Source: Neoarius graeffei (taxonomy: Eukaryota > Chordata > Actinopteri > Siluriformes > Ariidae). Taken from it: a stretch of DNA of 64,000 nucleotides. This document shows, one piece after another, positions 20,323 through 63,821 of the stretch (within the stretch, counting starts at the first letter, position 1; each line of letters begins with the position of its first letter). The position numbers were made by a program, and so were the translations under genes. The DNA is taken from the NCBI RefSeq assembly GCF_027579695.1, contig NC_083571.1, forward strand, positions 44,957,890-45,021,889, in the 5' to 3' direction. The notes under the pieces were generated by a model. It saw only the letters and a list, made by a program, of their open reading frames with translations, was not told the origin of the DNA and made no database searches.

Positions 20323-20425
20323 ATTTTCTTCAGTGATTTCAGCAATCACAGTGCTATTCCTCGCCTTCCTGTTAACCACAGCCTCGGTCCCAGTGTAAGC
20401 AATGAAGTGAATTAAAGTCTGGACT
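20323..20425 (-). CDS. chs1: chs1 unit 1, visible exon 18: C-terminal region
   Basis: This exon is 103 bp with acceptor ctttag. It encodes RVQTLIHFIAYTGTEAVV and ends ITEEN at a gtgagg donor. If the next acceptor is the ctcctcag at 20187-20194, the protein ends three codons later at a TAG at 20175-20177. Read-through into the intron instead would add about 27 residues. The exact C-terminus is therefore open. Confidence 0.7.
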
Positions 20426-23400
20426 CTAAAGGAAAAAAACAAAAACACCCACATACATATATAAGTCAAATAGTAATAATTCAGTGCGGTTTTAAATGTC
20501 ATACAACACAAGATCCATATTTTATGTACCTGTGCCACAGCATAGCGAGAAACTGGACAACAAGGAGGCTGGCAAAACTGAGGAGGAACATCAGTCCAAT
20601 AGGATCAATAAAAATTTTCTCATTAGGGTCAACAGTTCCATTGGGATACATCTTTGGGATGGGGATGTTCACTGGGCTGCCAATGACTTGCAGGAAGAAA
20701 GTAGCCACAATCCACAGGAGATTGCAGATGAAAAACACGAAAGCTGCCTAAAAATGTAAAGAAGATAATCAGACCACCTCACGATGTTATGTCATTACTC
20801 AAATGTTCCTAAGTAGAGTGATCTCTGCTAAACATTTGCTAACAGTTAGTTATACAATATACCATATACCTTTTAAGAGTGACATTGACAATGCAACTTC
20901 AGCGACTTATCATTTATTTTTTGTTAATTTGAATTCATTTCATTGTGAAATGTCTGAGAACGATGTGAAAAATAAACAAAAACTGCATTATGATGCCCAT
21001 GCCATAAAGATGAGCTTAAGGAATGATCATAATCACAATAGAATATACAAATACGAACATGTCCCCCCTACTAACAAACCTTGTCGCGTAGGTCTTTCAG
21101 GTCTTCTTTGATTGCTTCCTCCTTTTTTTTATCACTCACTAATGGTTTTAGGTATTTCTCAATAAGGTCCTTCCAGAAATATTCTTCTTCCTAATGCAAC
21201 AGAAAAGTTCATTATGTTACAAGCTGCATACTTGATTTTGATTGTTCTGTGAGCAGTTACTACTTTCCAGTCTTTACACAATGAACGGCCAAAATAAGAA
21301 ACAGTCTTGAGTAGATCAGGGATTCAGGTGACATGAATGTGTGGCCTCACAAATGCAAATTCCTAAAAATGCACACGTACCAAGTTATATTATATGGACG
21401 CAAGTGTTTTATTGGGAAACACACCACTCATACAAGCTACATCCAGGACATGGAGAACCAAAACCATGACATAAATCTCTATATGTCTTTTGTGAGGATA
21501 TCGATGAACTGTTTTGATTAATTTGGGGAATTTTTGTTTGTGAATGTGTCTATGTAATAAAAAGAACATCACATGCTGGCTTGAAGATATAAAGTTTATC
21601 TTCTCATGTTGAAAAACTCACATTTTGCATACAGAATATATTGTGGATCTGAGTGGCATATTTTCCAATATTCAGTTCAGTTCAGTGCCTTGCTCAAGGG
21701 CACGTGAGCCATTCGGGGAATCAAACTGGCAGCCTTTTGGTCCCAAAGCTGCTTTTCTAACTATTAGGCCATGGCTTCCGATGGCTTCCCATGCTCATTA
21801 ATGAATGTTCATTGGGGAAAAAAGTTATACTCACCGCATTAAGTTTCTCCTGGTTAAGGGGAAGTTCACCAGAGCTTTCTGTCAACTGTTCAATGAAAAC
21901 TATCAAAGAAATCTTTATTAATCATCTGTGGTACTGTGGGATATACTGTATATAAATATATACTGTAGTAAGAGTAGAAAAAAATCTATACTCACAGGTC
22001 TCATTTAAAGGTAATTGTCTAGGGGGGAAAAAACAAGATTGCTTTAATTCAGTGAACGTCATGTCCTTCAGGTGGGTTAAATAATAAAGGATACCTACAA
22101 TAGTTTAATAGCTAAATTAGTTTAAACAATCATCAAAATGTTAATATATTAGTTTATATATCTTACACTTCTTTAGGTTGGGTGGGCACTTTGTTTACAA
22201 CATTCAAAGGTATGGCTTGAGGCGCATTCTCTGGCACTGTACACATCACTTTTTCTTCTTTGTTCACTTGAATCTCCAGATTGTAGCCACATATTTTGAA
22301 CAGCTTCTGGCACTTGACATTCTTTTGGAGGTTCTGCTCAGGTCCACCGGACTGGTTGGCAGATTCGCGTGTGCCCCATGACACGTTGTTCATGTTGACT
22401 ATGGAGTAAATAGACAGCAGCAGGTAGCCACTGGGGATGCAGATGAAGTAAAGGAAGCCATAGATGATAAGATGGAACTCGTGAGGGTGAAGAAGAGCCG
22501 TGCCGACGTACATGATGATTAAGCCAATGAAGAACAAGCCGCTCGGAGTAAAAAATGTTTCCTCCATTACCATGTCCGCTGAAAACCCATACAGATAAGG
22601 ACTTAATTTTTTTTTTATCACAATTTAGTGTTCTCTATTATTTCAGTACAACATTTATTGGATGTGGAGAAATGCTAAAATATTTTATCAAACAAGCTCA
22701 GCCATCTTTGTTATCAAATTAGCCTAACATAGTTATTTCAAAGGAGAGAGGCAACAAGAAATAAGCAGTATAAGAGCACAATAAAATGAAATACTAAAGA
22801 TGGAGATAAGTTAAAGGACAGACCAAACATGTTAATACATAGTAATGTGTATTATTAAAGGTACCAGTTAAAGGTGCCAAGGGATTCTTAGACAGAATGT
22901 TAGTAAAAGTGCAAATTTTATAAAAGAAAACTTCACTTACCTATAATGGTAAAGATGGTTGCTGTCATCAGAAAAGCATAGATTATGCTCATGATGGCAG
23001 CAATGGTGATTTGTAAGTTTGATTTTTCTTGCCCAAGATAATAGCAGAGAAACAGGTAGATTACAGGAGGAATAACTGCTATCGCAAGTGCAGCGTTAGC
23101 ATCTATTTTGAGGACGGTTTTAAGGCTTCCTGTTGAAAAGACAGGTGATTTTTACACAAGAAATAGCTGCAAACTACATGTGAATTATTCTTTAAAAAAA
23201 AAAGACAAAGACACATACATACATATACACAATGCACTACGGATAATCATCTTCTTTGCTATATTGTTCTATTATTAGCAGAAAACTACCCAAGGACTTA
23301 GGCCACTATTTCACCTATGGTTCACAGTTTCATCCAATATACTTATAGCTTTCATCAAGCAAAAACAGTGAGATTTAAAAATCAATTAATGGGCAAACTG

Positions 23401-26400
23401 ATGAGTCTTTAGTAGTGTTTCACATGCAAAGACAATTGGCCTGAATTGAAATCATGAAATAGTTCTAAGCATCTAAAAACTGTCACCTGCAATCATGAGG
23501 CAGACCGTAGCTGGACCCAAGATCGAAGCAGCCATGGTGATAGTCTGGTAGAGAATGTACGGTCGTGATATGGACTTGTTCAACCTTGCTGTGATACTGC
23601 CAGTGGAAAGAAGGTCCAGAGTGTTGGCCATGGTGGATGGGCCCCAGCGCCGCCGTTGGTTGTAAAACTCCTTGAACTCCTGTGGAGCATTGGTGTACGA
23701 GTCAGAGGCAGCGTTGTACTCCACTCGCCATCCTTGCTGCAGGAGTAGTGTGCACAGCCAGCGGTCCTCACCTGCATACACAGAGCCAGAACACACAAGA
23801 TGCATCAGAGCACATGTGAATATACATTAAATATATAGGTATTAAATCAAAGTCCTTCCCACACCATTCAATGGCAGTGCCCATCTCCGTTTTGTAGCCC
23901 TCGGCCTCTCGCCTATTTTACATAACTAGAGTTACAGTAGGGGGCTAGTTGTCTGGTAACCGCGAGAGTTTGACTCTCCACTCACATCTGTATTGGAGCA
24001 TGCCTTGCCAGATGGCAGTAGGCACCATTTTTATGATGGTCTTTGGCATGACCCGACCGTGAGTAGAGATCGAGAGGCAGACACGCTAACCACTAGGCCG
24101 CTCGCCAGTCTAAAGGTATTAAGAGTATGTACTGTATATATCCTTTGGCTTTGTTTCACTCACCCTGGTCATACTGTAGATAGTGGGAAGCCTCAGTCGC
24201 TTTTGTGGTATATCTTTTCATGACGTTGTCACTCATGAGTGCCTCTGCACGCATCAGGCTGAAACAGCCTGGACTGCACAACACAGATCCAAACACATGC
24301 TCAGCTGTCTTCTGGAGCCAATGACCCACAGCGTACTCAAATTTCTGATACCATACCATCGGGCCTGCAACACACACAGTGTAAAGGTACTATTTTCATC
24401 ATCATAGAGAGCACCCACATAAGGTGTCAAATCTTTTCATTATTAATTTTTGGTCTCTTTATGACTATCGTGACCATTTTTAACCAGGACAGAAAAACTG
24501 GCTGTGTTTTCTGGGGAGGAAGGACGATGTTTACACTCTTTCCCGTCAATCAGAGTGAAACTATCTACAGTAATTGCTATGCTCAGTGACCTCATGTATA
24601 CAAAAGGGGGGCAGATAGCTTCATTTGTTTCAGAGTTGTTGTCTTCACCCTCCCCGTTTAGTAGCTGTTGCATGATAGGCGACAGCTAGCTAGTGGGTGG
24701 GAATTGGCAACCCACCAAATTGGGAGAAAATTTTTTTTTTTTTTTTTTTAAAAGAAAAGAAATAGTCTACAACTGAATTTTGGAAAAATTGTGCAAAAAA
24801 AAAAAGCCTACTGTGTGCAGCAAAGTGATGCCTGGGTAATAAAATACTGATAGATTTCTACAGTGGTCCTTAAATGAAAAAAAATTTTAACAAATAACAA
24901 TTAACAAACAGCAATATAGAAACCAAGAGAGGCTGGCTGCAGACTCGAGCTCTACACTAGACCAGAAACACGTGACCTCGATGCTCAGAATAATGAGAAA
25001 GTAGCTGGCTCGAAGGCTTTTTTTTTTAAATCAACTTAAAATGAATAAGCAATAGGAAATACAGAAACCATGTGACCTCTAGTCTAGACAGGAAACATGT
25101 GACCTTGGGTTAAGGTTAGGGTTAGGATTAACCCTAGGGTTAGGAGGTCACGTGTTTCCAGTCTAGAGTGGCGCTCCAGTCTGTAGAATGACCCTTCTAA
25201 AAAAAAAAAGAAAAGAAAAAACCCCCAGCAAATTCAGAAACACATGAATATTAATGAAAACAGAAAGGATGCTTCCTTCTTGAACATCACATGTTCATTG
25301 CCAATTCTCCACAGCAGTCTGAGAAACTGAGGAAGATGGAGAGCTGAAACTATATGGATCCAACATAACTTTACTCTGCTTTTTTTTGCCTTTACTTTTG
25401 TACTTCAATTAAATCTATTATTAATCACCTGTGCCGGTGGGATGAATCCTGCCACAAGCAGCTCCCACTTCGGGGTACAACTTGAGCCGATCCACTAAAA
25501 GCATGACAGCTGAAGGCTGGAAATCTGTGTCTCCATCTAGAGCCAGAAGGTATGTGTTCGCTTTGGCTTTCTGGAGGAGAAAGAAAATTCTAGGTGATGA
25601 AATCCTACATTATGAAACTGTTATGCAGCTCTTTTTGGGTAATCACACTTACCTTTAGTTGCTCTTCAATACTTGGCAAATGCACATCCTTTTGCTTGTA
25701 CATCTCGAAGTATTTCTTGTTCAGTTTCCAGCCGAGCAGGTAGTACATGTACATGATCTTTGGTGGAAAGAAACAGACTCGGTGTTTAAAATGAGACCTT
25801 GGAAGTAGATAAACTTTAAGCATACCGACAGTACATATTGTTTTAGTTGTTGAGAGTGTACACGCATAAGGTTAGCCCTGATAGTGCCTTTGAGTCCAAT
25901 CTAATACATCTAACGATGAGGTGTGATCGCATGTAAAGTTTGTTTGGACAGGGTTATAATTTGGGTTCTACAACTGGATCAAAATATCAGACAGCAGATC
26001 CTAGTATTATTCCTACTTTCAAAGTTTTATCATTTTCACCGTGATGAATATTGATAAATATTTTATTTTTACAGTTCAAAAACAGGTTGAATATTTTGTT
26101 TTGTTATACCTTTTTTCGCTCTTAGCTTATATAAAATAAGAAGACACATAGTTTGTGTTTGAATTTTTAAAATTGGCTACTCACATATCACAATTTTTTG
26201 TCATCATCATCTACACCAGTGAATTATTTTTCAGTGAAAATTTTATATAGTCAGACCAGTATAGTATTTAACCACAGTGTTGTAGTTGAGTCACTAAACC
26301 TCAAGTCCAAGTCCAATCTTAAGTCCAAGTCATTAAAAAAAATTTTGAATCAAGTCTGAGAACAAGACTCGGGCCGCAGCATTTGATGGCAGCCGTTTTA

Positions 26401-29070
26401 GCACCATTAACATTAGTTTGTTCCTAAACGTGACGTACAAACAAGTGAATGCGCGTTCTCTTTGTCAGTGAGTGCGACGCATTCTGTCAGAGATGGTTGG
26501 GAGACGGATGGAAGTGCAGAAGGTGTGTTTATTAATACAAGTGAAGAGGGTAAACAATCCAGAACGGCAGGCAAAATCGTAAAACAATGAAATGGGCAAT
26601 AGATCAAGCGAGGGACAAACAGGCTATCATAGACTCGGCAGAATCAAAGACGAAAAACAGGAAATCAGGGCCCAGAAAACCAGACAAGGAAATAAGGCTT
26701 GGTAACGTGTCAGCAAAGCAACTCAATACTTCGCAAAGTAATGCTGTGTTCACACTTATACCGGTACGAAAGTGGTATAACTGTATCGATACAAAGTATC
26801 CCGGTACAGTTTAGTGCATCTGTCCACACTAGCGAGAAATGTTTGCGGTTTTCTTTCACGGTAGTTGAAATGCGCGTGCGCGAAATGTTTCCGTGGTTAC
26901 CGAGTAACTTCCTTCCGAGAATATGGCGGATGAAACAACGTGTGTGTGCTTTTTGTTGTCAATGTACAGTCTGTATTTCTGGTGGTCATTTATTCAGCCG
27001 AATTGTATAAAACGCGCAAGGCAGTTGAGAAAGAAACAAAGAAAACGAATCTCCCTTTCTCCCCCCTCACTTTCTCCCTCTTCCCTTCTCTTCCCCTCAC
27101 TTTCTCCCTCTTTCCTTCTCTTCCCCTCCCTTTCTCTCCCTTTTCCCCTCTTCCTCCTTTCTTCCTCCCTCTTTCCCCCTTTCTCCCCCCTTTCTTTGCT
27201 CCATGTAGCTCCACGGTCGTTTTGAGCCATTTTGATGTTTTATTTACAGCTGGAAAGCACGTGCATATTGTATTGTATTGTATGAATAACCTGGAAGACG
27301 TAGGAATGGTTCATTGCGCATGCGCATTATATTTGTATTGATACAGAGCCGCTTCATCTGTCCACACTACAGCGAAGCGCTACAGTACTGATACTGTACC
27401 GGTACGAAACCCATACATTTGTGGGTTTCGTACTGATAGTTATACCGCTACAGTACCGGTATAGTTGCTAGTGTGGACAGGTGTTGCGGTACGAAAGTAG
27501 TTTCATATCGGTATAAAATCCCTAGTGTGGACAGGGTATAAGTGTGCTTTCACAGTCTTTATATAGGTGCGCTGATTGCGCCTTAATCCTGTGCAGGTGA
27601 GAGTTGTTTACGGCACGCACACCTGAGAGTCTATCTGATGCACAGGTGCGACACTCTTGCACGAAATATCTAGTGCCAAATTATTATGGCATGTTGCAAA
27701 AAATAAAGAAAAAAATCAGAGTCCTCGTCTCCAATTTATGAGTCCGAGTCCAAGTCCGAGTCATCAGTGCTAGAGTCCAAGTTAAGTCGCGAGTCTTTAA
27801 AATTAGGGCATGAGTCAGACTCGAGTACTACAAGCCTGTTTAACCCACTGTTGGAACCCCCAGTATGCTATGATTCTTTAGAATAACAGTTGTGGAGAAA
27901 AAGTTTAGGCATCACCTCACCTGAGACCATCTCTTTTTGTGGCGGATCTGTTGTTTGTCTTTGAAGTGAACAAACAGTGTGTTGCCATGGGGAAGTGTGT
28001 ACTGCAGACGGCAGCCATATGGTGTCTGGAAGATTTTCTGGGCAGGAAGAGGCTTTCTCTCCCGAAATGCGCTTTTGCTATCCTCGGTGAATATGCTGTA
28101 TATAATCAGAACACACACACAGACATTTCTCATTCACATTTCTAGGTAAATAATATATTTTTAGTATTTTAGTACAGATTTTTTCAGCCATTATGGTATT
28201 GTTTGCACAATTACTTACAGGTAAACTTCTTTGATGACTTCCACCAGGGTCTCAGCATACTCGTTGACACGCCGATTGTTGTTTTTAGTCAGGAAAGCAT
28301 CATCGAAATAAATGTGTGACTCAAAAACAACATCGTTAAACCGGTTTTTCTTTGGTCGGAACTTGTCCAGCCTGAAGGGAAGAGACGAAGACATTAATTT
28401 AAGGTTGATCAATGAAGGTCTCAAGTAGAAGATTCTTTTTACTATCAGAATACCTGAACATCGAGATGATCATCTTCAACATTTCATCTCTAGTCTCATG
28501 CCACATGGTTGCACAGAGGTAGATAGTCATCTTCTCTGTTTCCCTATTGGTGAGAATGGAAGAATGTTAATTCCAGAAGTTACTGTACATCAAAATGCAT
28601 TGTCCTTCAATAAGCGCATGCACACACACACACACTTAACTACCTGTTACATCTTGGAAGGGGCACAATATCAAACTTGATGTTCAAGAGCATGGACTGG
28701 TCAATGAATGCTGCTTCATAAAGGTTGCGAACAAACAGGTCCTTTGTCCTGGCAATGCGTTGTGTGTTCAGGAACCAGATGTAGAGTGTACAGAGCACCA
28801 GACCAATCCACCAGCTGATCAAAGACGATCCAAGCAGACCAAAATTCAGTGAAGACCCCTCGTCTGGTATGTGTTCACACAAGTCACGAGTTAAATCAGT
28901 CAGCATGTGTTTCATGACACTGAGCGCTGGGCTTTTTATGGCGTCAAAGGTGGTACAGTACTCAGCAAATGTGGTTTTCTTCTGAGCCTAAAAAGTGCAA
29001 AAAACAAGGGCAAAAAATGTTGTAAAAACAAAATAAAAAATAGGTATATATTGTGATTAAACTGTAATAA

Positions 29071-29143
<73 letters not shown>

Positions 29144-35764: not shown

Positions 35765-36045
35765 TTAAAGGTCCCATGGCATGAAATTTTCACTTTCTGA
35801 GGTTTTTTAACGTTAAAATGAGTTCCTCTGACCTTCTTAAGTCACCCCAGTGGCTAGAAATTTCATAATGTGTAAACCAAACTATGCCCAACATTTGAGA
35901 ATGGTGCATCAAAACGGCGCGTTGATAAACTCTTCCCTTTACTACGTCAGCAAGGGAGATGATCCCCACACCCCCCCCTCTGGATTCCCACCCACTGTAT
36001 GAATTGCCCGCCCAGTTGTAGTGAGGAGACCATAGAGGACACAAC

Positions 36046-36670: not shown

Positions 36671-37191
36671 ATAATAGCCAATCAAAAAAGTTTTTACAAA
36701 GACACCCACATTCTTTTTTTAAGTCACTCGTTCATTTTATTTGTTTGTTTGTTCAGTAAAAACCCAAACATTTGTTGAATTTATTTTATTTCCTCGCGTC
36801 ACACCTTAATGACATCAGCGCGCGGTATTTTTCCCTTCGCGGTTTGTTCCTTCTCTCTCGCCATAGTAAGACACCCACATCCGCTTATTCTGACCCACTG
36901 GAGGTAGCGTCACAGTGCTGTTAACCAATCAGAGGTAACACGTTTACATGTCATGAATATTAATTATAAGACCCGCCCCCACCCTCTACCCTTCCCCGCC
37001 TCCATGCTTCTCATTAGCAAAATGACACACTGGGAAAAGCGCTGAAATGGGGCTTTCTACCAGGAGGCTATATCTACGTGCCGAGGGTTCATTTCGAGAA
37101 AGGCTGCGGATATAACATCCGGAAACCTCCACGAGCCTGTTTAAAGCATCAACAAACCACCATGCCATGGGACCTTTAAAAACATTCATCT

Positions 37192-37380
37192 CGGGGGCGT
37201 CGTGGCTCAGGTGGTTAAGGCGCCATACCATGAATGCGGGCGACCCGGGTTCGATTCCGGCCCGAGGTCATTTCCCGATCCCTTCCCGTCTCTCTCTCCC
37301 GCTCATTTCCTGTCTCTACACTGTCCTATCCAATAAAGGTGCAAAAAGCCCAAAAAAATATCTTTAAAAAAAAAAAAAAA
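37192..37380 (+). mobile_element. tRNA-derived SINE present only in unit 2
   Basis: The head is tRNA-like, with an A box (tggctcaggtgg, 37203-37214) and a B box (ggttcgattcc, 37248-37258). The body ends caataaaggtgcaaaaagcc and a poly-A tail. A 14-bp target-site duplication (aaaaacattcatct) lies at 37178-37191 and 37381-37394. Unit 1 has the empty site near 3813-3826. The 203-bp gain equals the offset change from 33365 to 33568 exactly. Confidence 0.95.
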
Positions 37381-44209: not shown

Positions 44210-44234
44210 TCTGGATTCCAGGTTTCAGCACCAC

Positions 44235-50488: not shown

Positions 50489-51449
50489 TTCAGATTTCAG
50501 ATTTATTTTATTTCACACACACCATTATTTAACTTTCAATTGCATGTAATGAAAAAAAATTTAACAGCATAGACAAAGGGTCCCCAAGTGAAGCTAAGAA
50601 TAAGCTTATAAGCTGGGGCCCATGGTACAATAATTAATAGGTATTACAGCAAAGAAAAATAGTCAGGCATACAATATGCAAAACAGTTATGACAACCTGC
50701 ATTTACAGTACTCATCACCATACGACATATCTAGGTCCATAAGACATTTGGCACAATTATGAAATACAAAACCATCCACATACACCCACAACCACACCCA
50801 CACACACCCACAACATACACACACAGGCACACAGATACACATTCACATGCACACACACAGACACTCAACCCAGCTAACCATGGAAGAGGAAATTTTAGCT
50901 ATAGGTTTGTAATAGATGACTAAGAAGATGTTTTTTGAAGTTGGAGATAGATGGCATCACCTTCAAAGCTTCATCAATTTTGTTCCAAATCTGTGGCCCC
51001 CTACAAGCAACACTCATACTGGTGCGTACACACCTGCGATATTTGCCTAGAATGAGTGTTTTGTGTCGCGTGTGATGGGAATGCTGGGGGCTAGAGATGG
51101 GGATGAGACTGCATAATTTGAGGTTTCTTTTGTTAACAACTTGAAACATGAGACAAGCATTATGAAATTCGTTTAGTTCAGTTAGTCCTAATAACTTAAA
51201 GTGGCAGAAGAGAGGGAGAGATGGAGAGTTTAACTCAGACCAAGACAGGGCCCTAATGACTTTCTTTTGTAAGGATTGAAGTTTTTTGAGATGGCTAGAG
51301 AAGGTGTTGCCCCATATAACATTGCAGTAGTTAAGATGAGGTTCAAATAAAGTTTTATATAAAGTAAAAAGAGCCGACTGAGGAAGAAGTCCCATTTTTA
51401 GTTTAAAGTGTGTCCGTGTGTCGGTGTGAGAGGTCGGCTCACGGTGCAT
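50489..51449 (-). mobile_element. 3' end of a LINE, unit 2
   Basis: Counterpart of 16925-17885; the 184-residue frame at 50895-51449 has the same product. Confidence 0.8.
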
Positions 51450-51951
51450 ATTTGGCAGTCGCTACCGGTGGGCTGGGTGTTTGCATGCTTGTGTGTATGG
51501 TGTGTGTATGTGTGCGGTGTGTAAGTTGTGGGTCATTTGGGTTAGTGTTGAAGGGTAACAATTTTTGGTTTTGGCCACTTTGTGTTTTCGTTGCTTCACT
51601 GGTTTGTTTAAATTTATTTTCCTTTTTCTTTGTGTGACCATTGGCATGCAGTGTAACCACAGTCAGTGATTTGTGCATTTTTGTATTGTTTTCTTGTCTG
51701 CTGAACTGTTTGAAACATTAAGATCTGTCCATTCTGATTGTTGTTGCCCTCAAGGTGTGTAGCCCAAGGACTGAATGTGTGTGTGTTTTATTTATATTTT
51801 TTACTGAAAAAAAATAAATTGTTTATTTTAATACTCCAGTCTCTCTCTCTCCTTCATTGTTCCCTTCATTGGGATCCCCTGCTTGTGGGTTTGGTTAATA
51901 TTCAGATTTAATAGTAAACTGTACTGGTTGGTACTCCCCCTGGGGGTTACA

Positions 51952-52390
51952 GTTGGGACAAAGTACAAATTGTAAATAAAAATGGAATGCAATAATTTAC
52001 AAATTTCAAACTGATATTGTATTCGGAATAGAACATAGACAACATATCAAATGTCGAAAGTGAGACATTTTGAAATTTCATGCCAAATATTGGCTCATCT
52101 GAAATTTCATGACAGCAACACATCTCAAAAAAGTTGGGACAGGGGCAATAAGAGGCTGGAAAAGTTAAAGGTACAAAAAAGGAACAGCTGGAGGACCAAA
52201 TTGCAACTCATTAGGTCAATTGGTAATAGGTCATTAACATGACTGGGTATAAAAAGAGCATCTTGGAGTGGCAGCAGCTCTCAGAAGTAAAGATGGGAAG
52301 AGGATCACCAATCCCCCTAATTCTGCGCCGACAAATAGTGGAGCAATATCAGAAAGGAGTTCGACAGTGTAAAATTGCAAAGAGTTTGGC
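51952..52390 (+). mobile_element. 5' fragment of the Tc1-type element, unit 2
   Basis: Counterpart of 18388-18826. Confidence 0.9.
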
Positions 52391-53455
52391 TACTTTTAAA
52401 TGTGCTCAAATGTTAAAAAAATAACAAATAAACAAGCTGATGAAATTAAGTAATGTTTTATGTGAGAAGTAACTTTTATTACTTATCTAAAACTATTAAA
52501 ATTTGATTTTAGTTATAAAGCAACTATGTTGTTTTTCCAGAAAACATCATTTTCTAAGTTTGTGATATTTACCAGTAGACAGAATTGGATTTGCTGCCTA
52601 GCCAATTATGTCAGAAAACTGCTCCTCTTGGCATTAGAAACAAGAGAAAAAAGAGGATAATCTAGTTAAATATGCTTTTTCCATGACTTCTAAGGAGACA
52701 AATACAATGCCTCATTTTATTGGAGTCCTTATTGATTTCAGCATATTGAAACATTTTTAATGGAGGTAGGACCCAGGATGCCAATCCTCAAGTTCCACAC
52801 TGCAGTTTGGAGGCTTATCCATATTCCGAAGCACACTTATGGCTATAGAGTTAACTACATTGTGTAGCATAAGAATATCACTGCTGATGAGGAATTGGCT
52901 GATTCTTGAATTTTTCTACTTTGACGAACTTGCTTGGATGCGAAACTGAGCTGAATGGATGCTAAAATGAGCCCATTTGATTGACATATAGCATATAGTC
53001 ATTGGTTGAATGAAAGAACAAGAGACGATTGTGATTAAGTATGTTGATGGTCTCAGTAAATGTAGAGTATTTATTTTCTTGGAAAATAATTAAATAAGAG
53101 TACAGGTATTCAATTTCAAAATCACTCAAGTAAAGAATAAATACTATAAAAATAATTCTCACATATCATTAAAAAAAATACAGTTACTCAACTATTGTCT
53201 ACTCCTGGTCTTTGGCAAGTTACATTTCATTTCACCTTTGTGCACATGTAACTTTAATATCTAACACAGCAGCACAAAGACAAGACTCAGGTACATCTTG
53301 AAATAGAAATTAAATATATACTGCACATAGATTACGTATAACTTCATTTCTCATTGGTGGCTCACTGGATGGAGAAACTGCACAATTTCAATTAAAAGAC
53401 AACTAAAAGCTATGAAAAGAAATTAATCAGATGCTAGTATGTCACTGACAGTTTG

Positions 53456-53456
<1 letters not shown>
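52391..53456. other. Intergenic sequence downstream of chs1, unit 2
   Basis: Counterpart of 18827-19892; nothing recognised. Confidence 0.4.
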
Positions 53457-53531
<75 letters not shown>

Positions 53532-53532
53532 T
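53457..53532. repeat. Palindromic (AAT)n-(ATT)n microsatellite, unit 2
   Basis: Counterpart of 19893-19977, shorter by a few units. Confidence 0.92.
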
Positions 53533-53877
53533 TACAAATAACTGTAAACAATGTTAAACAAATAGGCCTAACAGCACAGTGGTAACAACTCTTTCAGTCC
53601 TAATAAGCAGGTATTGTATCGTCTAAGGATTGAGTTTCACCAGGTTTGTGTATCGTTGCAAAGTTTCCCATCACAGGTCAGCTTTTAGATCATCCACTTG
53701 TAGGCTTTTAATCAATTCCGATTTTTCTCCTAAAGAAAATTCTGAGGAGAAAATGAACCTTGAAGTTATTAAATGTGTCTGTCATCATGGTTAACACACT
53801 AATTAATTCCAAGGCATTAGTAATACTGGCAATAACAATGAAGAAGAAACATAAAGCAAAACAAAAAAAACCCTCAC

Positions 53878-53980
53878 ATTTTCTTCAGTGATTTCAGCAA
53901 TCACAGAGCTATTCCTCGCCTTCCTGTTAACCACAGCCTCGGTCCCAGTGTAAGCAATGAAGTGAATTAAAGTCTGGACT
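53878..53980 (-). CDS. chs1: chs1 unit 2, exon 18: C-terminal region
   Basis: This 103-bp exon is the counterpart of 20323-20425, with Ser for Thr in NSSVIAE. The same uncertainty about the final exon applies. Confidence 0.7.
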
Positions 53981-56900
53981 CTAAAGGAAAAAAACAAAAA
54001 CACCCACATACATATATAAGTCAAATAGTAATAATTCAGTGCGGTTTTAAATGTCATACAACACAAGATCCATATTTTATGTACCTGTGCCACAGCATAG
54101 CGAGAAACTGGACAACAAGGAGGCTGGCAAAACTGAGGAGGAACATCAGTCCAATAGGATCAATAAAAATTTTCTCATTAGGGTCAACAGTTCCATTGGG
54201 ATACATCTTTGGGATGGGGATGTTCACTGGGCTGCCAATGACTTGCAGGAAGAAAGTAGCCACAATCCACAGGAGATTGCAGATGAAAAACACGAAAGCT
54301 GCCTAAAAATGTAAAGAAGATAATCAGACCACCTCACGATGTTATGTCATTACTCAAATGTTCCTAAGTAGAGTGATCTCTGCTAAACATTTGCTAACAG
54401 TTAGTTATACAATATACCATATACCTTTTAAGAGTGACATTGACAATGCAACTTCAGCGACTTATCATTTATTTTTTGTTAATTTGAATTCATTTCATTG
54501 TGAAATGTCTGAGAACGATGTGAAAAATAAACAAAAACTGCATTATGATGCCCATGCCATAAAGATGAGCTTAAGGAATGATCATAATCACAATAGAATA
54601 TACAAATACGAACATGTCCCCCCTACTAACAAACCTTGTCGCGTAGGTCTTTCAGGTCTTCTTTGATTGCTTCCTCCTTTTTTTTATCACTCACTAATGG
54701 TTTTAGGTATTTCTCAATAAGGTCCTTCCAGAAATATTCTTCTTCCTAATGCAACAGAAAAGTTCATTATGTTACAAGCTGCATACTTGATTTTGATTGT
54801 TCTGTGAGCAGTTACTACTTTCCAGTCTTTACACAATGAACGGCCAAAATAAGAAACAGTCTTGAGTAGATCAGGGATTCAGGTGACATGAATGTGTGGC
54901 CTCACAAATGCAAATTCCTAAAAATGCACACGTACCAAGTTATATTATATGGACGCAAGTGTTTTATTGGGAAACACACCACTCATACAAGCTACATCCA
55001 GGACATGGAGAACCAAAACCATGACATAAATCTCTATATGTCTTTTGTGAGGATATCGATGAACTGTTTTGATTAATTTGGGGAATTTTTGTTTGTGAAT
55101 GTGTCTATGTAATAAAAAGAACATCACATGCTGGCTTGAAGATATAAAGTTTATCTTCTCATGTTGAAAAACTCACATTTTGCATACAGAATATATTGTG
55201 GATCTGAGTGGCATATTTTCCAATATTCAGTTCAGTTCAGTGCCTTGCTCAAGGGCACGTGAGCCATTCGGGGAATCAAACTGGCAGCCTTTTGGTCCCA
55301 AAGCTGCTTTTCTAACTATTAGGCCATGGCTTCCGATGGCTTCCCATGCTCATTAATGAATGTTCATTGGGGAAAAAAGTTATACTCACCGCATTAAGTT
55401 TCTCCTGGTTAAGGGGAAGTTCACCAGAGCTTTCTGTCAACTGTTCAATGAAAACTATCAAAGAAATCTTTATTAATCATCTGTGGTACTGTGGGATATA
55501 CTGTATATAAATATATACTGTAGTAAGAGTAGAAAAAAATCTATACTCACAGGTCTCATTTAAAGGTAATTGTCTAGGGGGGAAAAAACAAGATTGCTTT
55601 AATTCAGTGAACGTCATGTCCTTCAGGTGGGTTAAATAATAAAGGATACCTACAATAGTTTAATAGCTAAATTAGTTTAAACAATCATCAAAATGTTAAT
55701 ATATTAGTTTATATATCTTACACTTCTTTAGGTTGGGTGGGCACTTTGTTTACAACATTCAAAGGTATGGCTTGAGGCGCATTCTCTGGCACTGTACACA
55801 TCACTTTTTCTTCTTTGTTCACTTGAATCTCCAGATTGTAGCCACATATTTTGAACAGCTTCTGGCACTTGACATTCTTTTGGAGGTTCTGCTCAGGTCC
55901 ACCGGACTGGTTGGCAGATTCGCGTGTGCCCCATGACACGTTGTTCATGTTGACTATGGAGTAAATAGACAGCAGCAGGTAGCCACTGGGGATGCAGATG
56001 AAGTAAAGGAAGCCATAGATGATAAGATGGAACTCGTGAGGGTGAAGAAGAGCCGTGCCGATGTACATGATGATTAAGCCAATGAAGAACAAGCCGCTCG
56101 GAGTAAAAAATGTTTCCTCCATTACCATGTCCGCTGAAAACCCATACAGATAAGGACTTAATTTTTTTTTTTATCACAATTTAGTGTTCTCTATTATTTC
56201 AGTACAACATTTATTGGATGTGGAGAAATGCTAAAATATTTTATCAAACAAGCTCAGCCATCTTTGTTATCAAATTAGCCTAACATAGTTATTTCAAAGG
56301 AGAGAGGCAACAAGAAATAAGCAGTATAAGAGCACAATAAAATGAAATACTAAAGATGGAGATAAGTTAAAGGACAGACCAAACATGTTAATACATAGTA
56401 ATGTGTATTATTAAAGGTACCAGTTAAAGGTGCCAAGGGATTCTTAGACAGAACGTTAGTAAAAGTGCAAATTTTATAAAAGAAAACTTCACTTACCTAT
56501 AATGGTAAAGATGGTTGCTGTCATCAGAAAAGCATAGATTATGCTCATGATGGCAGCAATGGTGATTTGTAAGTTTGATTTTTCTTGCCCAAGATAATAG
56601 CAGAGAAACAGGTAGATTACAGGAGGAATAACTGCTATCGCAAGTGCAGCGTTAGCATCTATTTTGAGGACGGTTTTAAGGCTTCCTGTTGAAAAGACAG
56701 GTGATTTTTACACAAGAAATAGCTGCAAACTACATGTGAATTATTCTTTAAAAAAAAAAGACAAAGACACATACATACATATACACAATGCACTACGGAT
56801 AATCATCTTCTTTGCTATATTGTTCTATTATTAGCAGAAAACTACCCAAGGACTTAGGCCACTATTTCACCTATGGTTCACAGTTTCATCCAATATACTT

Positions 56901-59900
56901 ATAGCTTTCATCAAGCAAAAACAGTGAGATTTAAAAATCAATTAATGGGCAAACTGATGAGTCTTTAGTAGTGTTTCACATGCAAAGACAATTGGCCTGA
57001 ATTGAAATCATGAAATAGTTCTAAGCATCTAAAAACTGTCACCTGCAATCATGAGGCAGACCGTAGCTGGACCCAAGATCGAAGCAGCCATGGTGATAGT
57101 CTGGTAGAGAATGTACGGTCGTGATATGGACTTGTTCAACCTTGCTGTGATACTGCCAGTGGAAAGAAGGTCCAGAGTGTTGGCCATGGTGGATGGGCCC
57201 CAGCGCCGCCGTTGGTTGTAAAACTCCTTGAACTCCTGTGGAGCATTGGTGTACGAGTCAGAGGCAGCGTTGTACTCCACTCGCCATCCTTGCTGCAGGA
57301 GTAGCGTGCACAGCCAGCGGTCCTCACCTGCATACACAGAGCCAGAACACACAAGATGCATCAGAGCACATGTGAATATACATTAAATATATAGGTATTA
57401 AATCAAAGTCCTTCCCACACCATTCAATGGCAGTGCCCATCTCCGTTTTGTAGCCCTCGGCCTCTCGCCTATTTTACATAACTAGAGTTACAGTAGGGGG
57501 CTAGTTGTCTGGTAACCGCGAGAGTTTGACTCTCCACTCACATCTGTATTGGAGCATGCCTTGCCAGATGGCAGTAGGCACCATTTTTATGATGGTCTTT
57601 GGCATGACCCGACCGTGAGTAGAGATCGAGAGGCAGACACGCTAACCACTAGGCCGCTCGCCAGTCTAAAGGTATTAAGAGTATGTACTGTATATATCCT
57701 TTGGCTTTGTTTCACTCACCCTGGTCATACTGTAGATAGTGGGAAGCCTCAGTCGCTTTTGTGGTATATCTTTTCATGACGTTGTCACTCATGAGTGCCT
57801 CTGCACGCATCAGGCTGAAACAGCCTGGACTGCACAACACAGATCCAAACACATGCTCAGCTGTCTTCTGGAGCCAATGACCCACAGCGTACTCAAATTT
57901 CTGATACCATACCATCGGGCCTGCAACACACACAGTGTAAAGGTACTATTTTCATCATCATAGAGAGCACCCACATAAGGTGTCAAATCTTTTCATTATT
58001 AATTTTTGGTCTCTTTATGACTATCGTGACCATTTTTAACCAGGACAGCAAAACTGGCTGTGTTTTCTGGGGAGGAAGGACGATGTTTACACTCTTTCCC
58101 GTCAATCAGAGTGAAACTATCTACAGTAATTGCTATGCTCAGTGACCTCATGTATACAAAAGGGGGGCAGATAGCTTCATTTGTTTCAGAGTTGTTGTCT
58201 TCACCCTCCCCGTTTAGTAGCTGTTGCATGATAGGCGACAGCTAGCTAGTGGGTGGGAATTGGCAACCCACCAAATTGGGAGAAAATTTTTTTTTTTTTT
58301 TTTTTAAAAAGAAAAGAAATAGTCTACAACTGAATTTTGGAAAAATTGTGCAAAAAAAAAAAGCCTACTGTGTGCAGCAAAGTGATGCCTGGGTAATAAA
58401 ATACTGATAGATTTCTACAGTGGTCCTTAAATGAAAAAAAATTTTAACAAATAACAATTAACAAACAGCAATATAGAAACCAAGAGAGGCTGGCTGCAGA
58501 CTCGAGCTCTACACTAGACCAGAAACACGTGACCTCGATGCTCAGAATAATGAGAAAGTAGCTGGCTCGAAGGCTTTTTTTTTTAAATCAACTTAAAATG
58601 AATAAGCAATAGGAAATACAGAAACCATGTGACCTCTAGTCTAGACAGGAAACATGTGACCTTGGGTTAAGGTTAGGGTTAGGATTAACCCTAGGGTTAG
58701 GAGGTCACGTGTTTCCAGTCTAGAGTGGCGCTCCAGTCTGTAGAATGACCCTTCTAAAAAAAAAAAGAAAAGAAAAAACCCCCAGCAAATTCAGAAACAC
58801 ATGAATATTAATGAAAACAGAAAGGATGCTTCCTTCTTGAACATCACATGTTCATTGCCAATTCTCCACAGCAGTCTGAGAAACTGAGGAAGATGGAGAG
58901 CTGAAACTATATGGATCCAACATAACTTTACTATGCTTTTTTTTGCCTTTACTTTTGTACTTCAATTAAATCTATTATTAATCACCTGTGCCGGTGGGAT
59001 GAATCCTGCCACAAGCAGCTCCCACTTCGGGGTACAACTTGAGCCGATCCACTAAAAGCATGACAGCTGAAGGCTGGAAATCTGTGTCTCCATCTAGAGC
59101 CAGAAGGTATGTGTTCGCTTTGGCTTTCTGGAGGAGAAAGAAAATTCTAGGTGATGAAATCCTACATTATGAAACTGTTATGCAGCTCTTTTTGGGTAAT
59201 CACACTTACCTTTAGTTGCTCTTCAATACTTGGCAAATGCACATCCTTTTGCTTGTACATCTCGAAGTATTTCTTGTTCAGTTTCCAGCCGAGCAGGTAG
59301 TACATGTACATGATCTTTGGTGGAAAGAAACAGACTCGGTGTTTAAAATGAGACCTTGGAAGTAGATAAACTTTAAGCATACCGACAGTACATATTGTTT
59401 TAGTTGTTGAGAGTGTACACGCATAAGGTTAGCCCTGATAGTGCCTTTGAGTCCAATCTAATACATCTAACGATGAGGTGTGATCGCATGTAAAGTTTGT
59501 TTGGACAGGGTTATAATTTGGGTTCTACAACTGGATCAAAATATCAGACAGCAGATCCTAGTATTATTCCTACTTTCAAAGTTTTATCATTTTCACCGTG
59601 ATGAATATTGATTGCAAATATTTTATTTTTACAGTTCAAAAACAGGTTGAATATTTTGTTTTGTTATACCTTTTTTCGCTCTTAGCTTATATAAAATAAG
59701 AAGACACATAGTTTGTGTTTGAATTTTTAAAATTGGCTACTCACATATCACAATTTTTTGTCATCATCATCTACACCAGTGAATTATTTTTCAGTGAAAA
59801 TTTTATATAGTCAGACCAGTATAGTATTTAACCACAGTGTTGTAGTTGAGTCACTAAACCTCGAGTCCAAGTCCAATCTTAAGTCCAAGTCATTAAAAAA

Positions 59901-62644
59901 ATTTTTGAATCAAGTCTGAGAACAAGACTCGGGCCGCAGCATTTGATGGCGGCCGTTTTAGCACCATTAACATTAGTTTGTTCCTAAACGTGACGTACAA
60001 ACAAGTGAATGCGCGTTCTCTTTGTCAGTGAGTGCGACGCATTCTGTCAGAGATGGTTGGGAGACGGATGGAAGTGCAGAAGGTGTGTTTATTAATACAA
60101 GTGAAGAGGGTAAACAATCCAGAACGGCAGGCAAAATCGTAAAACAATGAAATGGGCAATAGATCAAGCGAGGGACAAACAGGCTATCATAGACTCGGCA
60201 GAATCAAAGACGAAAAACAGGAAATCAGGGCCCAGGAAACCAGACAAGGAAATAAGGCTTGGTAACGTGTCAGCAAAGCAACTCAATACTTCGCAAAGTA
60301 ATGCTGTGTTCACACTTATACCGGTACGAAAGTGGTATAACTGTATCGATACAAAGTATCCCGGTACAGTTTAGTGCATCTGTCCACACTAGTGAGAAAT
60401 GTTTGCGGTTTTCTTTCACGGTAGTTGAAATGCGCGTGCGCGAAATGTTTCCGTGGTTACCGAGTAACTTCCTTCCGAGAATATGGCGGATGAAACAACG
60501 TGTGTGTGCTTTTTGTTGTCAATGTACAGTCTGTATTTCTGGTGGTCATTTATTCAGCCGAATCGTATAAAATGCGCGAGGCAGTTGAGAAAGAAACAAA
60601 GAAAACGAATCTCCCTTTCTCCCCCCTCACTTTCTCCCTCTTCCCTTCTCTTCCCCTCACTTTCTCCCTCTTTCCTTCTCTTCCCCTCCCTTTCTCTCCC
60701 TTTTCCCCTCTTCCTCCTTTCTTCCTCCCTCTTTCCCCCCCCCTCCCCCTCTCCCTTTCTCCCCCCTTTCTTTGCTCCATGTAGCTCCACGGTCGTTTTG
60801 AGCCATTTTGATGTTTTATTTACAGCTGGAAAGCACGTGCGTATTGTATTGTATTGTATGAATAACCTGGAAGACGTAGGAATGGTTCATTGCGCATGCG
60901 CATTATATTTGTATTGATACAGAGCCGCTTCATCTGTCCACACTACAGCGAAGCGCTACAGTACTGATACTGTACCGGTACGAAACCCATACATTTGTGG
61001 GTTTCGTACTGATAGTTATACCGCTACAGTACCGGTATAGTTGCTAGTGTGGACAGGTGTTGCGGTACGAAAGTAGTTTCATATCGGTATAAAATCCCTA
61101 GTGTGGACAGGGTATAAGTGTGCTTTCACAGTCTTTATATAGGTGCGCTGATTGCGCCTTAATCCTGTGCAGGTGAGAGTTGTTTACGGCACGCACACCT
61201 GAGAGTCTATCTGATGCACAGGTGCGACACTCTTGCACGAAATATCTAGTGCCAAATTATTATGGCATGTTGCAAAAAATAAAGAAAAAAATCAGAGTCC
61301 TCGTCTCCAATTTATGAGTCCGAGTCCAAGTCCGAGTCATCAGTGCTAGAGTCCAAGTTAAGTCGCGAGTCTTTAAAATTAGGGCATGAGTCAGACTCGA
61401 GTACTACAAGCCTGTTTAACCCACTGTTGGAACCCCCAGTATGCTATGATTCTTTAGAATAACAGTTGTGGAGAAAAAGTTTAGGCATCACCTCACCTGA
61501 GACCATCTCTTTTTGTGGCGGATCTGTTGTTTGTCTTTGAAGTGAACAAACAGTGTGTTGCCATGGGGAAGTGTGTACTGCAGACGGCAGCCATATGGTG
61601 TCTGGAAGATTTTCTGGGCAGGAAGAGGCTTTCTCTCCCGAAATGCGCTTTTGCTATCCTCGGTGAATATGCTGTATATAATCAGAACACACACACAGAC
61701 ATTTCTCATTCACATTTCTAGGTAAATAATATATTTTTAGTATTTTAGTACAGATTTTTTCAGCCATTATGGTATTGTTTGCACAATTACTTACAGGTAA
61801 ACTTCTTTGATGACTTCCACCAGGGTCTCAGCATACTCATTGACACGCCGATTGTTGTTTTTAGTCAGGAAAGCATCATCGAAATAAATGTGTGACTCAA
61901 AAACAACATCGTTAAACCGGTTTTTCTTTGGTCGGAACTTGTCCAGCCTGAAGGGAAGAGACGAAGACATTAATTTAAGGTTGATCAATGAAGGTCTCAA
62001 GTAGAAGATTCTTTTTACTATCAGAATACCTGAACATCGAGATGATCATCTTCAACATTTCATCTCTAGTCTCATGCCACATGGTTGCACAGAGGTAGAT
62101 AGTCATCTTCTCTGTTTCCCTATTGGTGAGAATGGAAGAATGTTAATTCCAGAAGTTACTGTACATCAAAATGCATTGTCCTTCAATAAGCGCATGCACA
62201 CACACACACACTTAACTACCTGTTACATCTTGGAAGGGGCACAATATCAAACTTGATGTTCAAGAGCATGGACTGGTCAATGAATGCTGCTTCATAAAGG
62301 TTGCGAACAAACAGGTCCTTTGTCCTGGCAATGCGTTGTGTGTTCAGGAACCAGATGTAGAGTGTACAGAGCACCAGACCAATCCACCAGCTGATCAAAG
62401 ACGATCCAAGCAGACCAAAATTCAGTGAAGACCCCTCGTCTGGTATGTGTTCACACAAGTCATGAGTTAAATCAGTCAGCATGTGTTTCATGACGCTGAG
62501 CGCTGGGCTTTTTATGGCGTCAAAGGTGGTACAGTACTCAGCAAATGTGGTTTTCTTCTGAGCCTAAAAAGTGCAAAAAACAAGGGCAAAAAATGTTGTA
62601 AAAACAAAATAAAAAATAGGTATATATTGTGATTAAACTGTAAT

Positions 62645-62741
<97 letters not shown>

Positions 62742-63821
62742 GACTAAGAAATCCATGCAGTATTGCTGTGACAGAATTCTAGCAAACAACCAAAAAAAAA
62801 ACATTTTTTGGGCAATAACCTGCTGCTATTCTACCAAAAGTTTCACCAAAACTGTTTTAAAATAAGCTACATAAGGAGGCAGCTCTACATATCTGAGGAT
62901 AAAACTGCCAGTATGAAGAAAGAATATGCTTTTATTGCTAGTTTACTAGGTACATATGCATCCGTCATGCAGTGATCAAGTCTTTGCTTGTGTGTCTTTG
63001 TGAGATGGATATAAGTGAACCTAAACATAGTAGAACAAGAGTGACACATATAAGATGCTGCCTGCATGTTTTCCCAGGCAGCCACATACACGTATGCAAT
63101 AATTATGATATATGTTCATTATTATTATTACCTGAAGAAAGGGAATCCAGATAGCCAGGACGAAGGCACCCAATGTGGCTGGAGATGTGAAGATCATAGG
63201 AGTGACGAAGCTGCGACGCACAGCATGCATTTTGCATGCAGCTACGGCCACGTAGCGACACACAGCTGAAGCTAGAACCTGAAGAGCGAAGAGGCTCAAG
63301 ACGACAGTTTTGGTGTTATCGGTGACTGACAGCACTGATGACCAGTCCTGGCCTGAGAGCTTCACATAAGCACCAAGGACAGTGAAGGTCACAATAATTC
63401 GCACCAAGCTAGCCACAATGTTCACGAAGTTGTGAGACCTTTTGATGTCCCGGACCGTGTTCTGGAAGAAGACGATGCGGAAAAGCAAGGCATAATTCTC
63501 CCACCAGTTCATCGAGACCAGGAAAGTGCCTCCTATGGCTAAACCCACGAAAAGTGCCATGTTTTGCTTTCCATTTTGCTGTTTGAGGTAGTTCACAGCA
63601 AAGAGGCAAAAACCTGCAAGAAGGAAAAAGACAGCGGCGACCGAAGTTGCAGTAAATCGCTTCCTTCCGTGCGCAATTGCATTTCCCACCACCTGCAGTA
63701 TGGCTGATAATATGGCAATGCCATTCAGAAGCATCACATTGGTCAGGATGTCAAATCGGGGCATAGCGACCAGGATAAGGATGGAAGATCCGACAGCCAC
63801 CAAAGTTTCCACTGAAATGAT
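53878..63821 (-). CDS. chs1: Chitin synthase gene, unit 2 (16 exons chained, 5' end beyond window)
   Basis: This is the second copy, in the same orientation, with every splice site of visible exons 3-18 intact and no stop or frameshift. Exons 1-2 lie past the window end. Compared with unit 1 it has six amino-acid changes: Thr to Ser (exon 18, NSTV), Val to Ile (exon 13), Arg to His (exon 4), and Thr to Ile, Glu to Lys and Ala to Thr (exon 3). Three silent changes were also found. None touches the DGD, EDRW, QRRRW or SWGTRE motifs, so both copies could make active enzyme. If the duplication is real this is a paralogue; if not, it is the other allele. Confidence 0.92.
54085..54302 (-). CDS. chs1: chs1 unit 2, exon 17: last membrane pair
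   Basis: This 218-bp exon is identical to 20530-20747. Confidence 0.92.
54635..54745 (-). CDS. chs1: chs1 unit 2, exon 16: charged linker
   Basis: This 111-bp exon is identical to 21080-21190. Confidence 0.9.
55390..55454 (-). CDS. chs1: chs1 unit 2, exon 15
   Basis: This 65-bp exon is identical to 21835-21899. Confidence 0.7.
55551..55573 (-). CDS. chs1: chs1 unit 2, exon 14: 23-nt micro-exon
   Basis: Identical to 21996-22018, with the same splice signals and phase. Confidence 0.65.
55722..56133 (-). CDS. chs1: chs1 unit 2, exon 13: SWGTRE motif
   Basis: This 412-bp exon is the counterpart of 22167-22578. It has Ile in MYIGT where unit 1 has Val; SWGTRE is intact. Confidence 0.95.
56497..56685 (-). 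CDS. chs1: chs1 unit 2, exon 12
   Basis: This 189-bp exon is identical to 22941-23129 and encodes membrane helices. Confidence 0.9.
57043..57327 (-). CDS. chs1: chs1 unit 2, exon 11: EDRW and QRRRW
   Basis: This 285-bp exon is the counterpart of 23487-23771. Both catalytic motifs are intact. One silent change lies in the Thr codon of LCTLL. Confidence 0.97.
57403..57669 (-). mobile_element. tRNA-derived SINE in chs1 intron, unit 2
   Basis: Counterpart of 23847-24113. Confidence 0.75.
57720..57920 (-). CDS. chs1: chs1 unit 2, exon 10
   Basis: This 201-bp exon is identical to 24164-24364, with the VWYQKFEYAVGHWLQK block intact. Confidence 0.95.
58661..58702. repeat. Telomere-like repeats in inverted setting, unit 2
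   Basis: Counterpart of 25105-25145. Confidence 0.7.
58986..59127 (-). CDS. chs1: chs1 unit 2, exon 9: DGD motif
   Basis: This 142-bp exon is identical to 25429-25570 and retains DGDTDFQPSA. Confidence 0.95.
59210..59314 (-). CDS. chs1: chs1 unit 2, exon 8
   Basis: This 105-bp exon is identical to 25653-25757 and encodes MYMYYLLGW and its linker. Confidence 0.9.
59840..61409. mobile_element. Nested TIR elements in chs1 intron 7, unit 2
   Basis: Counterpart of 26280-27833. The inner element is at about 60305-61129, and its pyrimidine tract (60604-60777) carries about 16 extra bases. Confidence 0.6.
61497..61671 (-). CDS. chs1: chs1 unit 2, exon 7: RHKKRWSQ block
   Basis: This 175-bp exon is identical to 27921-28095, with the same splice sites. 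Confidence 0.92.
61795..61947 (-). CDS. chs1: chs1 unit 2, exon 6
   Basis: This 153-bp exon is the counterpart of 28219-28371, with one silent change in the Asn codon of VNEY. Confidence 0.9.
62030..62119 (-). CDS. chs1: chs1 unit 2, exon 5: CATMWHE block
   Basis: This 90-bp exon is identical in sequence to 28454-28543 and encodes CATMWHETRDEM. Confidence 0.92.
62220..62563 (-). CDS. chs1: chs1 unit 2, exon 4
   Basis: This 344-bp exon is the counterpart of 28644-28987. It has DLTHDL where unit 1 has DLTRDL, plus one silent change in the codon before VMKHM. Confidence 0.9.
62650..62743. repeat. (TG)n(AG)n compound microsatellite, unit 2
   Basis: Counterpart of 29072-29142. The AG part is more than twice as long and includes a CAG interruption. 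Confidence 0.95.
63132..63821 (-). CDS. chs1: chs1 unit 2, exon 3: large multi-pass exon
   Basis: This 690-bp exon is the counterpart of 29531-30220, with the same gtacag acceptor and gtaata donor. It has three amino-acid differences from unit 1: Thr to Ile (SSILIL), Glu to Lys (DNTKTV) and Ala to Thr (SFVTPM). All three need a C-to-T or G-to-A type change. Confidence 0.92.

What the first reader, a model, noticed from the sequence alone, without database searches (positions are those of the whole stretch)
20323..63821. Two chitin synthase genes in tandem in a vertebrate genome
The gene on the minus strand carries the full set of chitin synthase signatures (DGDTDFQPSA, EDRW, QRRRW, SWGTRE). 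Chitin synthase in fishes is established knowledge, but most vertebrates are taught to lack chitin and copy number is little explored. Here the gene occurs twice, head to tail, with all visible catalytic exons intact in both copies. A doubled gene could raise dosage for gut or epithelial chitin.
Basis: partly seen in the sequence, partly recalled or inferred. Interest (0 to 1): 0.8.

Follow-up and report, generated by a model that had tools for sequence, protein, structure and literature searches.

The report
Three near-identical fish chitin synthase genes
A fish-like genome carries not two but three young, almost identical, apparently intact copies of a chitin-making gene in a row, beside two older relatives: an ordinary kind of gene duplication in an unusual gene for a backboned animal.

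Summary
The gene is a chitin synthase: Pfam Chitin_synth_2 at 106.6 bits; in the PDB, chitin synthase 1 scores 47.5 bits and hyaluronan synthase 21.1. The window's 2.34-Gb genome has RAG1, so it is a jawed vertebrate. A third near-identical unit lies outside the window. The array is U0-junction-U1-junction-U2, about 99 kb, unit about 33 kb, pairwise divergence 0.28-0.38%. Each copy has 16 modelled coding exons and no stops. Genome searches find five chitin synthase genes: three in the array, an older same-strand neighbour about 31 kb away, one on C6. Both junctions share one composite break; no other place among the candidates scored has it. U1 is a mosaic, U2-like on its left and U0-like on its right, with one switch inside the gene. 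That is the polarity of an unequal crossover turning two copies into three. If one diploid individual was assembled, three distinct sequences cannot all be alleles of a single-copy locus; the third could still be an assembly product. Expression, dosage and the 5' exon are untested. New member of a known kind.

The parts
1..17825 (.). Right part of tandem unit U0 (its chitin synthase gene lies left of the window, exons at window coordinates about -13069 to -1695, i.e. about C3:44944820-44956194)
   Evidence: Self-comparison with 60 kb flanks; exon mapping
17826..18386 (.). Junction 1 filler: about 560 bp piece of an interspersed repeat, joined to a broken LINE on the left and a Tc1-like fragment on the right
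   Evidence: filler alone has 41 genome matches incl. the two junctions, 40 of 61 candidates scored; 2 of 41 matches span the whole LINE-filler-Tc1 query, 40 of 1362 candidates scored
18387..51389 (.). Tandem unit U1 (18387-19016 is the Tc1-like left edge; 19017-51389 was used for the three-way alignment)
20323..31698 (-). Chitin synthase copy in U1, 16 modelled coding exons: 31698-31558, 31443-31261, 30220-29531, 28987-28644, 28543-28454, 28371-28219, 28095-27921, 25757-25653, 25570-25429, 24364-24164, 23771-23487, 23129-22941, 22578-22250, 21190-21080, 20747-20530, 20425-20323
   Evidence: Exon homology to two paralogs; splice model, no stops
28717..30167 (.). Interval of the best single switch from U2-like (left) to U0-like (right) in U1, inside the gene
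   Evidence: 17 of 119 informative sites misfit; opposite polarity at best 55; 0 of 20,000 shuffles as good
37178..37380 (.). 203-bp insertion present only in U1, of SINE-like appearance (name recalled from its look, no call)
51390..51950 (.). Junction 2 filler; 51264-52664 is identical to 17700-19100
51951..64000 (.). Left part of tandem unit U2 (continues to about 84593 outside the window)
53878..63821 (-). Chitin synthase copy in U2, exons 16 to 3; exons 2 and 1 lie outside the window at 64865-65047 and 65162-65302
   Evidence: all 16 exons full length, no stops

Best explanation
A young tandem array of a metazoan-type chitin synthase gene in a fish-like genome. A 33-kb block in which I recognised one host gene was first duplicated head to tail through a non-homologous break (LINE, truncated repeat, Tc1-like fragment). 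An unequal crossover inside the gene then turned two copies into three, leaving a hybrid middle copy (5' side U0-like, 3' side U2-like). Shown, in the assembly: gene identity, three distinct units, shared junctions, open exons, a mosaic with the right polarity. Inferred: that the assembled copy number equals the real one; that each copy makes a membrane glycosyltransferase that polymerises UDP-GlcNAc into chitin and extrudes it; that extra copies raise output in gut or other epithelia (least certain, about 0.25).
For: Chitin_synth_2 1.7e-30 over the joined exons; PDB best hits are chitin synthases, hyaluronan synthase 26 bits lower. Three units, pairwise 98/32020, 120/31852, 89/31944 substitutions; odd copy out U0 64, U1 33, U2 55 of 152 variable columns. 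Two junctions identical over 1401 bases and the only end-to-end matches found, 2 of 41 (40 of 1362 candidates scored). The right flank keeps the LINE frame open across the point where the junction breaks it. U1 fits a single-crossover hybrid, 17 misfits of 119 against at best 55 for the opposite polarity, 0 of 20,000 shuffles as good. U1 has 33 private substitutions and a private 203-bp insert, so it is not merely a replay of U0 and U2. No N from 60 kb left to 60 kb right of the window. No stops in three copies of 1153 codons; the 15 introns, GT-AG by construction in the U1 model, keep GT-AG in U0 and U2.
Against: No reads, depth or RNA could be examined. The mosaic geometry is also what an assembly graph looped once too often would give, and U1's private differences could come from the other haplotype. 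The exon with the start codon was not found. The last splice and the C-terminal tail are uncertain: read by eye, the array's exon-16 donor is in a different phase from the C6 paralog, giving a short altered tail. Constraint among copies is weak: 13 nonsynonymous to 9 synonymous sites, one-sided p = 0.04 without transition bias; nonsynonymous rate not clearly below introns, p = 0.17.
Confidence: 0.7

Rival explanations
1. Assembly artefact: the individual has one or two real copies, and the remaining unit(s) come from the second haplotype or from an assembly-graph loop through the identical stretches.
For: Divergence of about 0.1% over much of the unit is in the range of ordinary heterozygosity (range recalled); the U1 hybrid is also what a looped path would make. 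No reads were available.
Against: Three distinct sequences, each with private substitutions (64, 33, 55), cannot all be alleles of a single-copy locus if one diploid individual was assembled. Both junctions share one composite break, seen at no other place among the candidates scored, and the right flank keeps the LINE unbroken. U1 has its own 203-bp insert.
Confidence: 0.22
2. Neutral segmental duplication: the array is real, but the added chitin synthase copies are redundant passengers of a transposon-rich block and have no dosage effect. (Compatible with the array history of the best explanation.)
For: Several frames in the block are of mobile elements; coding variation is not depleted against introns, 22 of 3459 versus 59 of 7864.
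Against: All three copies remain open with intact modelled splice sites and carry at least 19 kb of sequence upstream of exon 1 inside the unit. At this youth an absence of stops is weak evidence either way.
Confidence: 0.45
3. The gene is another family-2 glycosyltransferase such as hyaluronan synthase.
For: Hyaluronan synthases do align weakly (21.1 bits). The best NCBIfam match is NodC, a bacterial chitooligosaccharide synthase, far below its cut-off (59.1 against 550 bits).
Against: Chitin synthases score higher (47.5 bits; Chitin_synth_2 106.6 bits). A separate gene at C6:50986052 matches hyaluronan synthase 1 at 350 bits.
Confidence: 0.01

Closest known systems
Teleost chitin synthase genes, subclades I and II (PMC10234404, section 13 read)
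   Same: EDR, QRRRW, QKFEY and the CATMWHxT motif said there to be present in subclade II only are all in the array gene.
   Different: That work explains teleost copies by whole-genome duplications and reports one gene in gar; here three copies are a recent tandem array, plus an older tandem neighbour. The neighbour and the C6 gene also carry CATMWHET, so the motif alone does not place them.
Tandem chitin synthases in the snail Lottia gigantea (PMC3942024, passages seen)
   Same: Tandem repetition of animal chitin synthase genes.
   Different: Those are attributed to duplications in early mollusc evolution and perhaps later in snails; here the copies differ by 0.3-0.4%.
Om-CHS1 of tilapia gut epithelium (PMC6109156, passages seen)
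   Same: A fish chitin synthase; suggests a gut barrier role by analogy.
   Different: No expression data here; no sequence comparison with Om-CHS1 was made.

Membership tests
Animal (type 2) chitin synthase, GT2 | Chitin synthase catalytic domain | tested here: met
   PF03142 106.6 bits on the joined exons, cut-off 27. Control: single-exon scores of this model are near the cut-off and it also rings in 4 of 14 named control genomes, so the weight rests on the joined protein
Animal (type 2) chitin synthase, GT2 | EDR, QRRRW, QKFEY and CATMWHxT motifs | tested here: met
   Present in the U1 model; CATMWH, EDRW and QRRRW counted in U0, U1 and U2
Animal (type 2) chitin synthase, GT2 | WGTRE motif C-terminal of the catalytic core (role of the motif recalled) | tested here: met
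   Residue 967 in U0, U1 and U2
Animal (type 2) chitin synthase, GT2 | N-terminal membrane region of chitin synthases | tested here: inconclusive
   Exon 3 frame matches PF23000, 26 bits, cut-off 23.5; not listed at E<0.001 for the joined protein
Animal (type 2) chitin synthase, GT2 | Chitin made from UDP-GlcNAc | not testable with these tools
   Needs enzyme assay
Hyaluronan synthase | Best match to hyaluronan synthases | tested here: not met
   21.1 bits versus 47.5 for chitin synthase 1
Teleost chitin synthase subclade II | Position in a tree with named fish genes | not testable with these tools
   No named fish protein was at hand; the CATMWHxT motif is met
Genuine tandem array | Shared junction between units, specific to the array | tested here: met
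   Identical over 1401 bases; 2 of 41 matches span the query, 40 of 1362 candidates scored
Genuine tandem array | More distinct sequences than two alleles | tested here: met
   Three units with private sites; assumes one diploid individual
Genuine tandem array | Read depth and spanning reads | not testable with these tools
   No reads held

The most novel reading that the evidence does not exclude
A vertebrate lineage is currently amplifying chitin synthase: a crossover inside the gene made a hybrid third copy, the array may still vary in copy number among individuals, and selection for more epithelial chitin keeps the copies open.
Probability: 0.2. Interest if true: 0.6.

Novelty: new member of a known kind. 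Interest (0 to 1): 0.38.

Why it matters
The role of chitin in fishes is still unsettled. A recent array with copy-specific changes offers a natural dosage experiment: individuals that differ in array length could be compared for gut chitin, and the 22 variable coding sites let RNA reads be assigned to copies. It also suggests that a fish chitin synthase set can grow by tandem duplication and not only by genome duplication. If the array proves an assembly product, it is a useful warning.

Tried and rejected
Hyaluronan synthase as identity: rejected. A false duplication of a single-copy locus: rejected for all three units together, by three distinct sequences, if one diploid individual was assembled; not rejected for one extra unit. 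Duplication by recombination between matching repeats at both ends: not supported, since the left break is in a Tc1-like element, the right break in a LINE, and an unrelated repeat lies between. Loss of the 3' end in U1 and U2 because the unit stops short: considered; exon 16 and a candidate last exon (down to 20119) lie inside the unit, whose left edge is 18387. Search for the first exon with the start codon by homology upstream of exon 1: in the filtered listing only mobile-element matches or weak ones. Search for a conserved C-terminal tail among paralogs: 1180 matches, mostly mobile-element in the filtered listing. Rooting of the paralogs: no outgroup at hand. Structure prediction was not tried, because the joined protein is not in the DNA letter for letter. 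One search gave no rows through a wrong option and one search stopped on a frame error; both were redone. The first joined D3 model mis-set its exons 8-9; one search reads that pair open when corrected, but the whole D3 model was not rebuilt, so the D3 identities are approximate. The absence of N holds for the 120 kb of flank only: a run of 2500 N lies at window coordinate 141501-144000 in L031, 57 kb right of the array.
Full report
What is in the window. The window holds one full tandem unit with parts of two others: 1-30399 matches 33386-64000 with 46 substitutions in 30,362 aligned columns and 13 gaps. The assembly is held: the window is C3:44957890-45021889 of a 2.34-Gb genome in 38 contigs. 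RAG1 is present at 1250.9 bits on C2, in two pieces with 743 bases between; the same model rings in 0 of 14 named control genomes. A RAG1 split by an intron is, from recall, a teleost trait.

The gene. Exons were found by matching frames of the window to two paralogs in the same genome and joined with a splice model that allows GT-AG introns only. The model has 16 coding exons and 1153 codons. It starts after an acceptor site, so an upstream exon with the start codon is missing, and homology searches did not find it. Its last splice is uncertain: read by eye, the exon-16 donor phase differs from the C6 paralog, so the array copies may end in a short altered cytosolic tail. The joined protein matches Chitin_synth_2 at 106.6 bits, and all six PDB sequences matched at E up to 0.001 are chitin synthases. 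In a direct ranking of the catalytic part, chitin synthase 1 scores 47.5 bits and hyaluronan synthase 1 scores 21.1. The genome has a separate gene at C6:50986052, part of which matches hyaluronan synthase 1 at 350 bits.

How many genes. A search of the whole genome with the EDRW-QRRRW exon gives five places from 11 candidates, none with stops: three on C3 at 99-100% identity, one on C3 at 78%, one on C6 at 81%. The Pfam family finds two exons of each of the same five genes and, as the eleventh of 11 matches, the hyaluronan-synthase-like gene; the exon scores are near the cut-off, and the model also rings in 4 of 14 control genomes, so this count leans on agreement. The 78% gene (here D3) runs from window coordinate about -44353 to -72099 on the same strand, about 31 kb from U0's gene. 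C3 thus has four chitin synthase genes in one orientation over about 137 kb. Over the models the array gene is 59% identical to C6 and 50% to D3; C6 and D3 are 50% identical (the D3 values are approximate). The joined C6 model has no stops. The D3 model has none before its end, with exons 8-9 mis-set at first and open when corrected.

The array. Over 60 kb of flank on each side there is no N; the only N run in the stretch fetched later is 2500 bases at 141501-144000, well outside the array. The units are U0 (-14317 to 17825), U1 (19017 to 51389) and U2 (52581 to 84593). Pairwise substitutions are 98 of 32,020, 120 of 31,852 and 89 of 31,944. Of 152 variable columns without gaps, U0 is alone in 64, U2 in 55, U1 in 33. 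Between units sits a junction: a LINE broken at 17825, about 560 bases of another repeat, and a Tc1-like element from 18387 lacking its first 21 or so bases. The two junctions are identical over 1401 bases. The right flank of the array keeps the LINE reading frame open across the break point, and the left flank keeps the Tc1-like start. The filler has 39 further matches among 41, some only in part, with 40 of 61 candidates scored. The whole LINE-filler-Tc1 query is matched end to end only at the two junctions, 2 of 41 matches, with 40 of 1362 candidates scored; a full-length match elsewhere would be expected to rank among those scored, but this is not proof of absence.

How the array arose. 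The variable sites are strongly clustered: 87 of 151 neighbouring pairs have the same odd copy out, against a mean of 53 and a maximum of 78 in 20,000 shuffles. In 19.0-26.0 kb U1 and U2 differ by 0.10% while U0 is 0.62-0.67% away; in 30-36 kb U0 and U1 differ by 0.18% while U2 is 0.67-0.77% away; beyond 36 kb all three differ by 0.11-0.13%. One switch in U1 at 28.7-30.2 kb, a stretch that takes in most of exon 3 and part of exon 4, leaves 17 of 119 informative sites unexplained; the opposite polarity leaves at best 55. An unequal crossover between the right copy of one chromatid and the left copy of another makes exactly such a middle copy, left part from the right-hand unit and right part from the left-hand unit. 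I read this as two copies becoming three. An assembly path looped once too often would have the same geometry. Against that stand U1's 33 private substitutions and its private 203-bp insert, though a second haplotype could supply those. If one diploid individual was assembled, three distinct sequences cannot all be alleles of a single-copy locus, so I hold at least two tandem copies as very likely and three as likely. If each copy gained roughly 0.05-0.1% private changes since then (from the counts), an assumed rate near 5e-9 per site and year (recalled) would put the event on the order of 0.1-0.2 million years ago; later gene conversion would make this too young.

Are the copies functional? 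All 16 exons are full length without stops in all three (U0's exon 16 was re-cut because of a one-base gap in its flank), and the 15 introns keep GT-AG in U0 and U2. U1 and U2 differ by six amino-acid and three silent changes, U0 and U1 by 10 and 8, U0 and U2 by 10 and 7. Of 22 variable coding sites 13 are nonsynonymous; the deficit is slight (one-sided p = 0.04 without transition bias), and the nonsynonymous rate is not clearly below that of introns (p = 0.17). The catalytic core of U1 and U2 is identical over 379 residues. These copies are too young for strong inference.

Comparison with what is known. [quoted passage not shown] PMC6109156 (passages seen) reports a chitin synthase expressed in tilapia gut epithelium. 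CATMWHxT is said in PMC10234404 to occur in subclade II only; CATMWH is present in all five genes here, so either this genome lacks subclade I or the motif does not sort these genes. PMC3942024 (passages seen) reports tandem chitin synthases in Lottia, and PMC13071475 (passages seen) lists chitin synthase activity among terms of expanded families in carnivorous Characiformes. My searches for a published tandem array of fish chitin synthases showed none in the parts seen: listings, the first 25 of 363 papers, the first 12 of 26, and the papers named above. The library lacks most subscription journals. The finding is a new member of a known kind: a recent tandem amplification of a known gene.

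Noticed in passing
about 5997-10657 and 39565-44224, minus strand: A Ty3/Gypsy-like retrotransposon with SCAN, protease, integrase and (by eye) reverse transcriptase frames sits in each unit; U2's copy lacks 188 bases in a two-copy 188-base tandem repeat that U0 and U1 have. A related copy, about 91% identical, lies in the left flank.
   Followed up: partly
4145-5116 and 37713-38684, plus strand: A 324-codon open Tc1-like transposase frame (DDE_3, HTH), without a substitution between the two window units.
   Followed up: no
2660-2989 and 36025-36354, plus strand: A 110-codon frame with a THAP domain, possibly the start of a THAP-bearing transposase or a captured gene.
   Followed up: no
G000:C6:48664569-48664641 and near 48671025: Two exon-16-like segments lie about 6.5 kb apart downstream of the C6 gene, perhaps alternative last exons or a partial duplication; exon 16 is about 15.5 kb from exon 15.
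   Followed up: no
17827-18387: About 560 bases of an interspersed repeat; two other copies read in full (C1, C13) share further sequence on the LINE side but part from each other at the Tc1-side end.
   Followed up: partly
L031, window coordinate 141501-144000: A run of 2500 N ends the stretch fetched right of the array; it may be an assembly gap or a withheld stretch.
   Followed up: no
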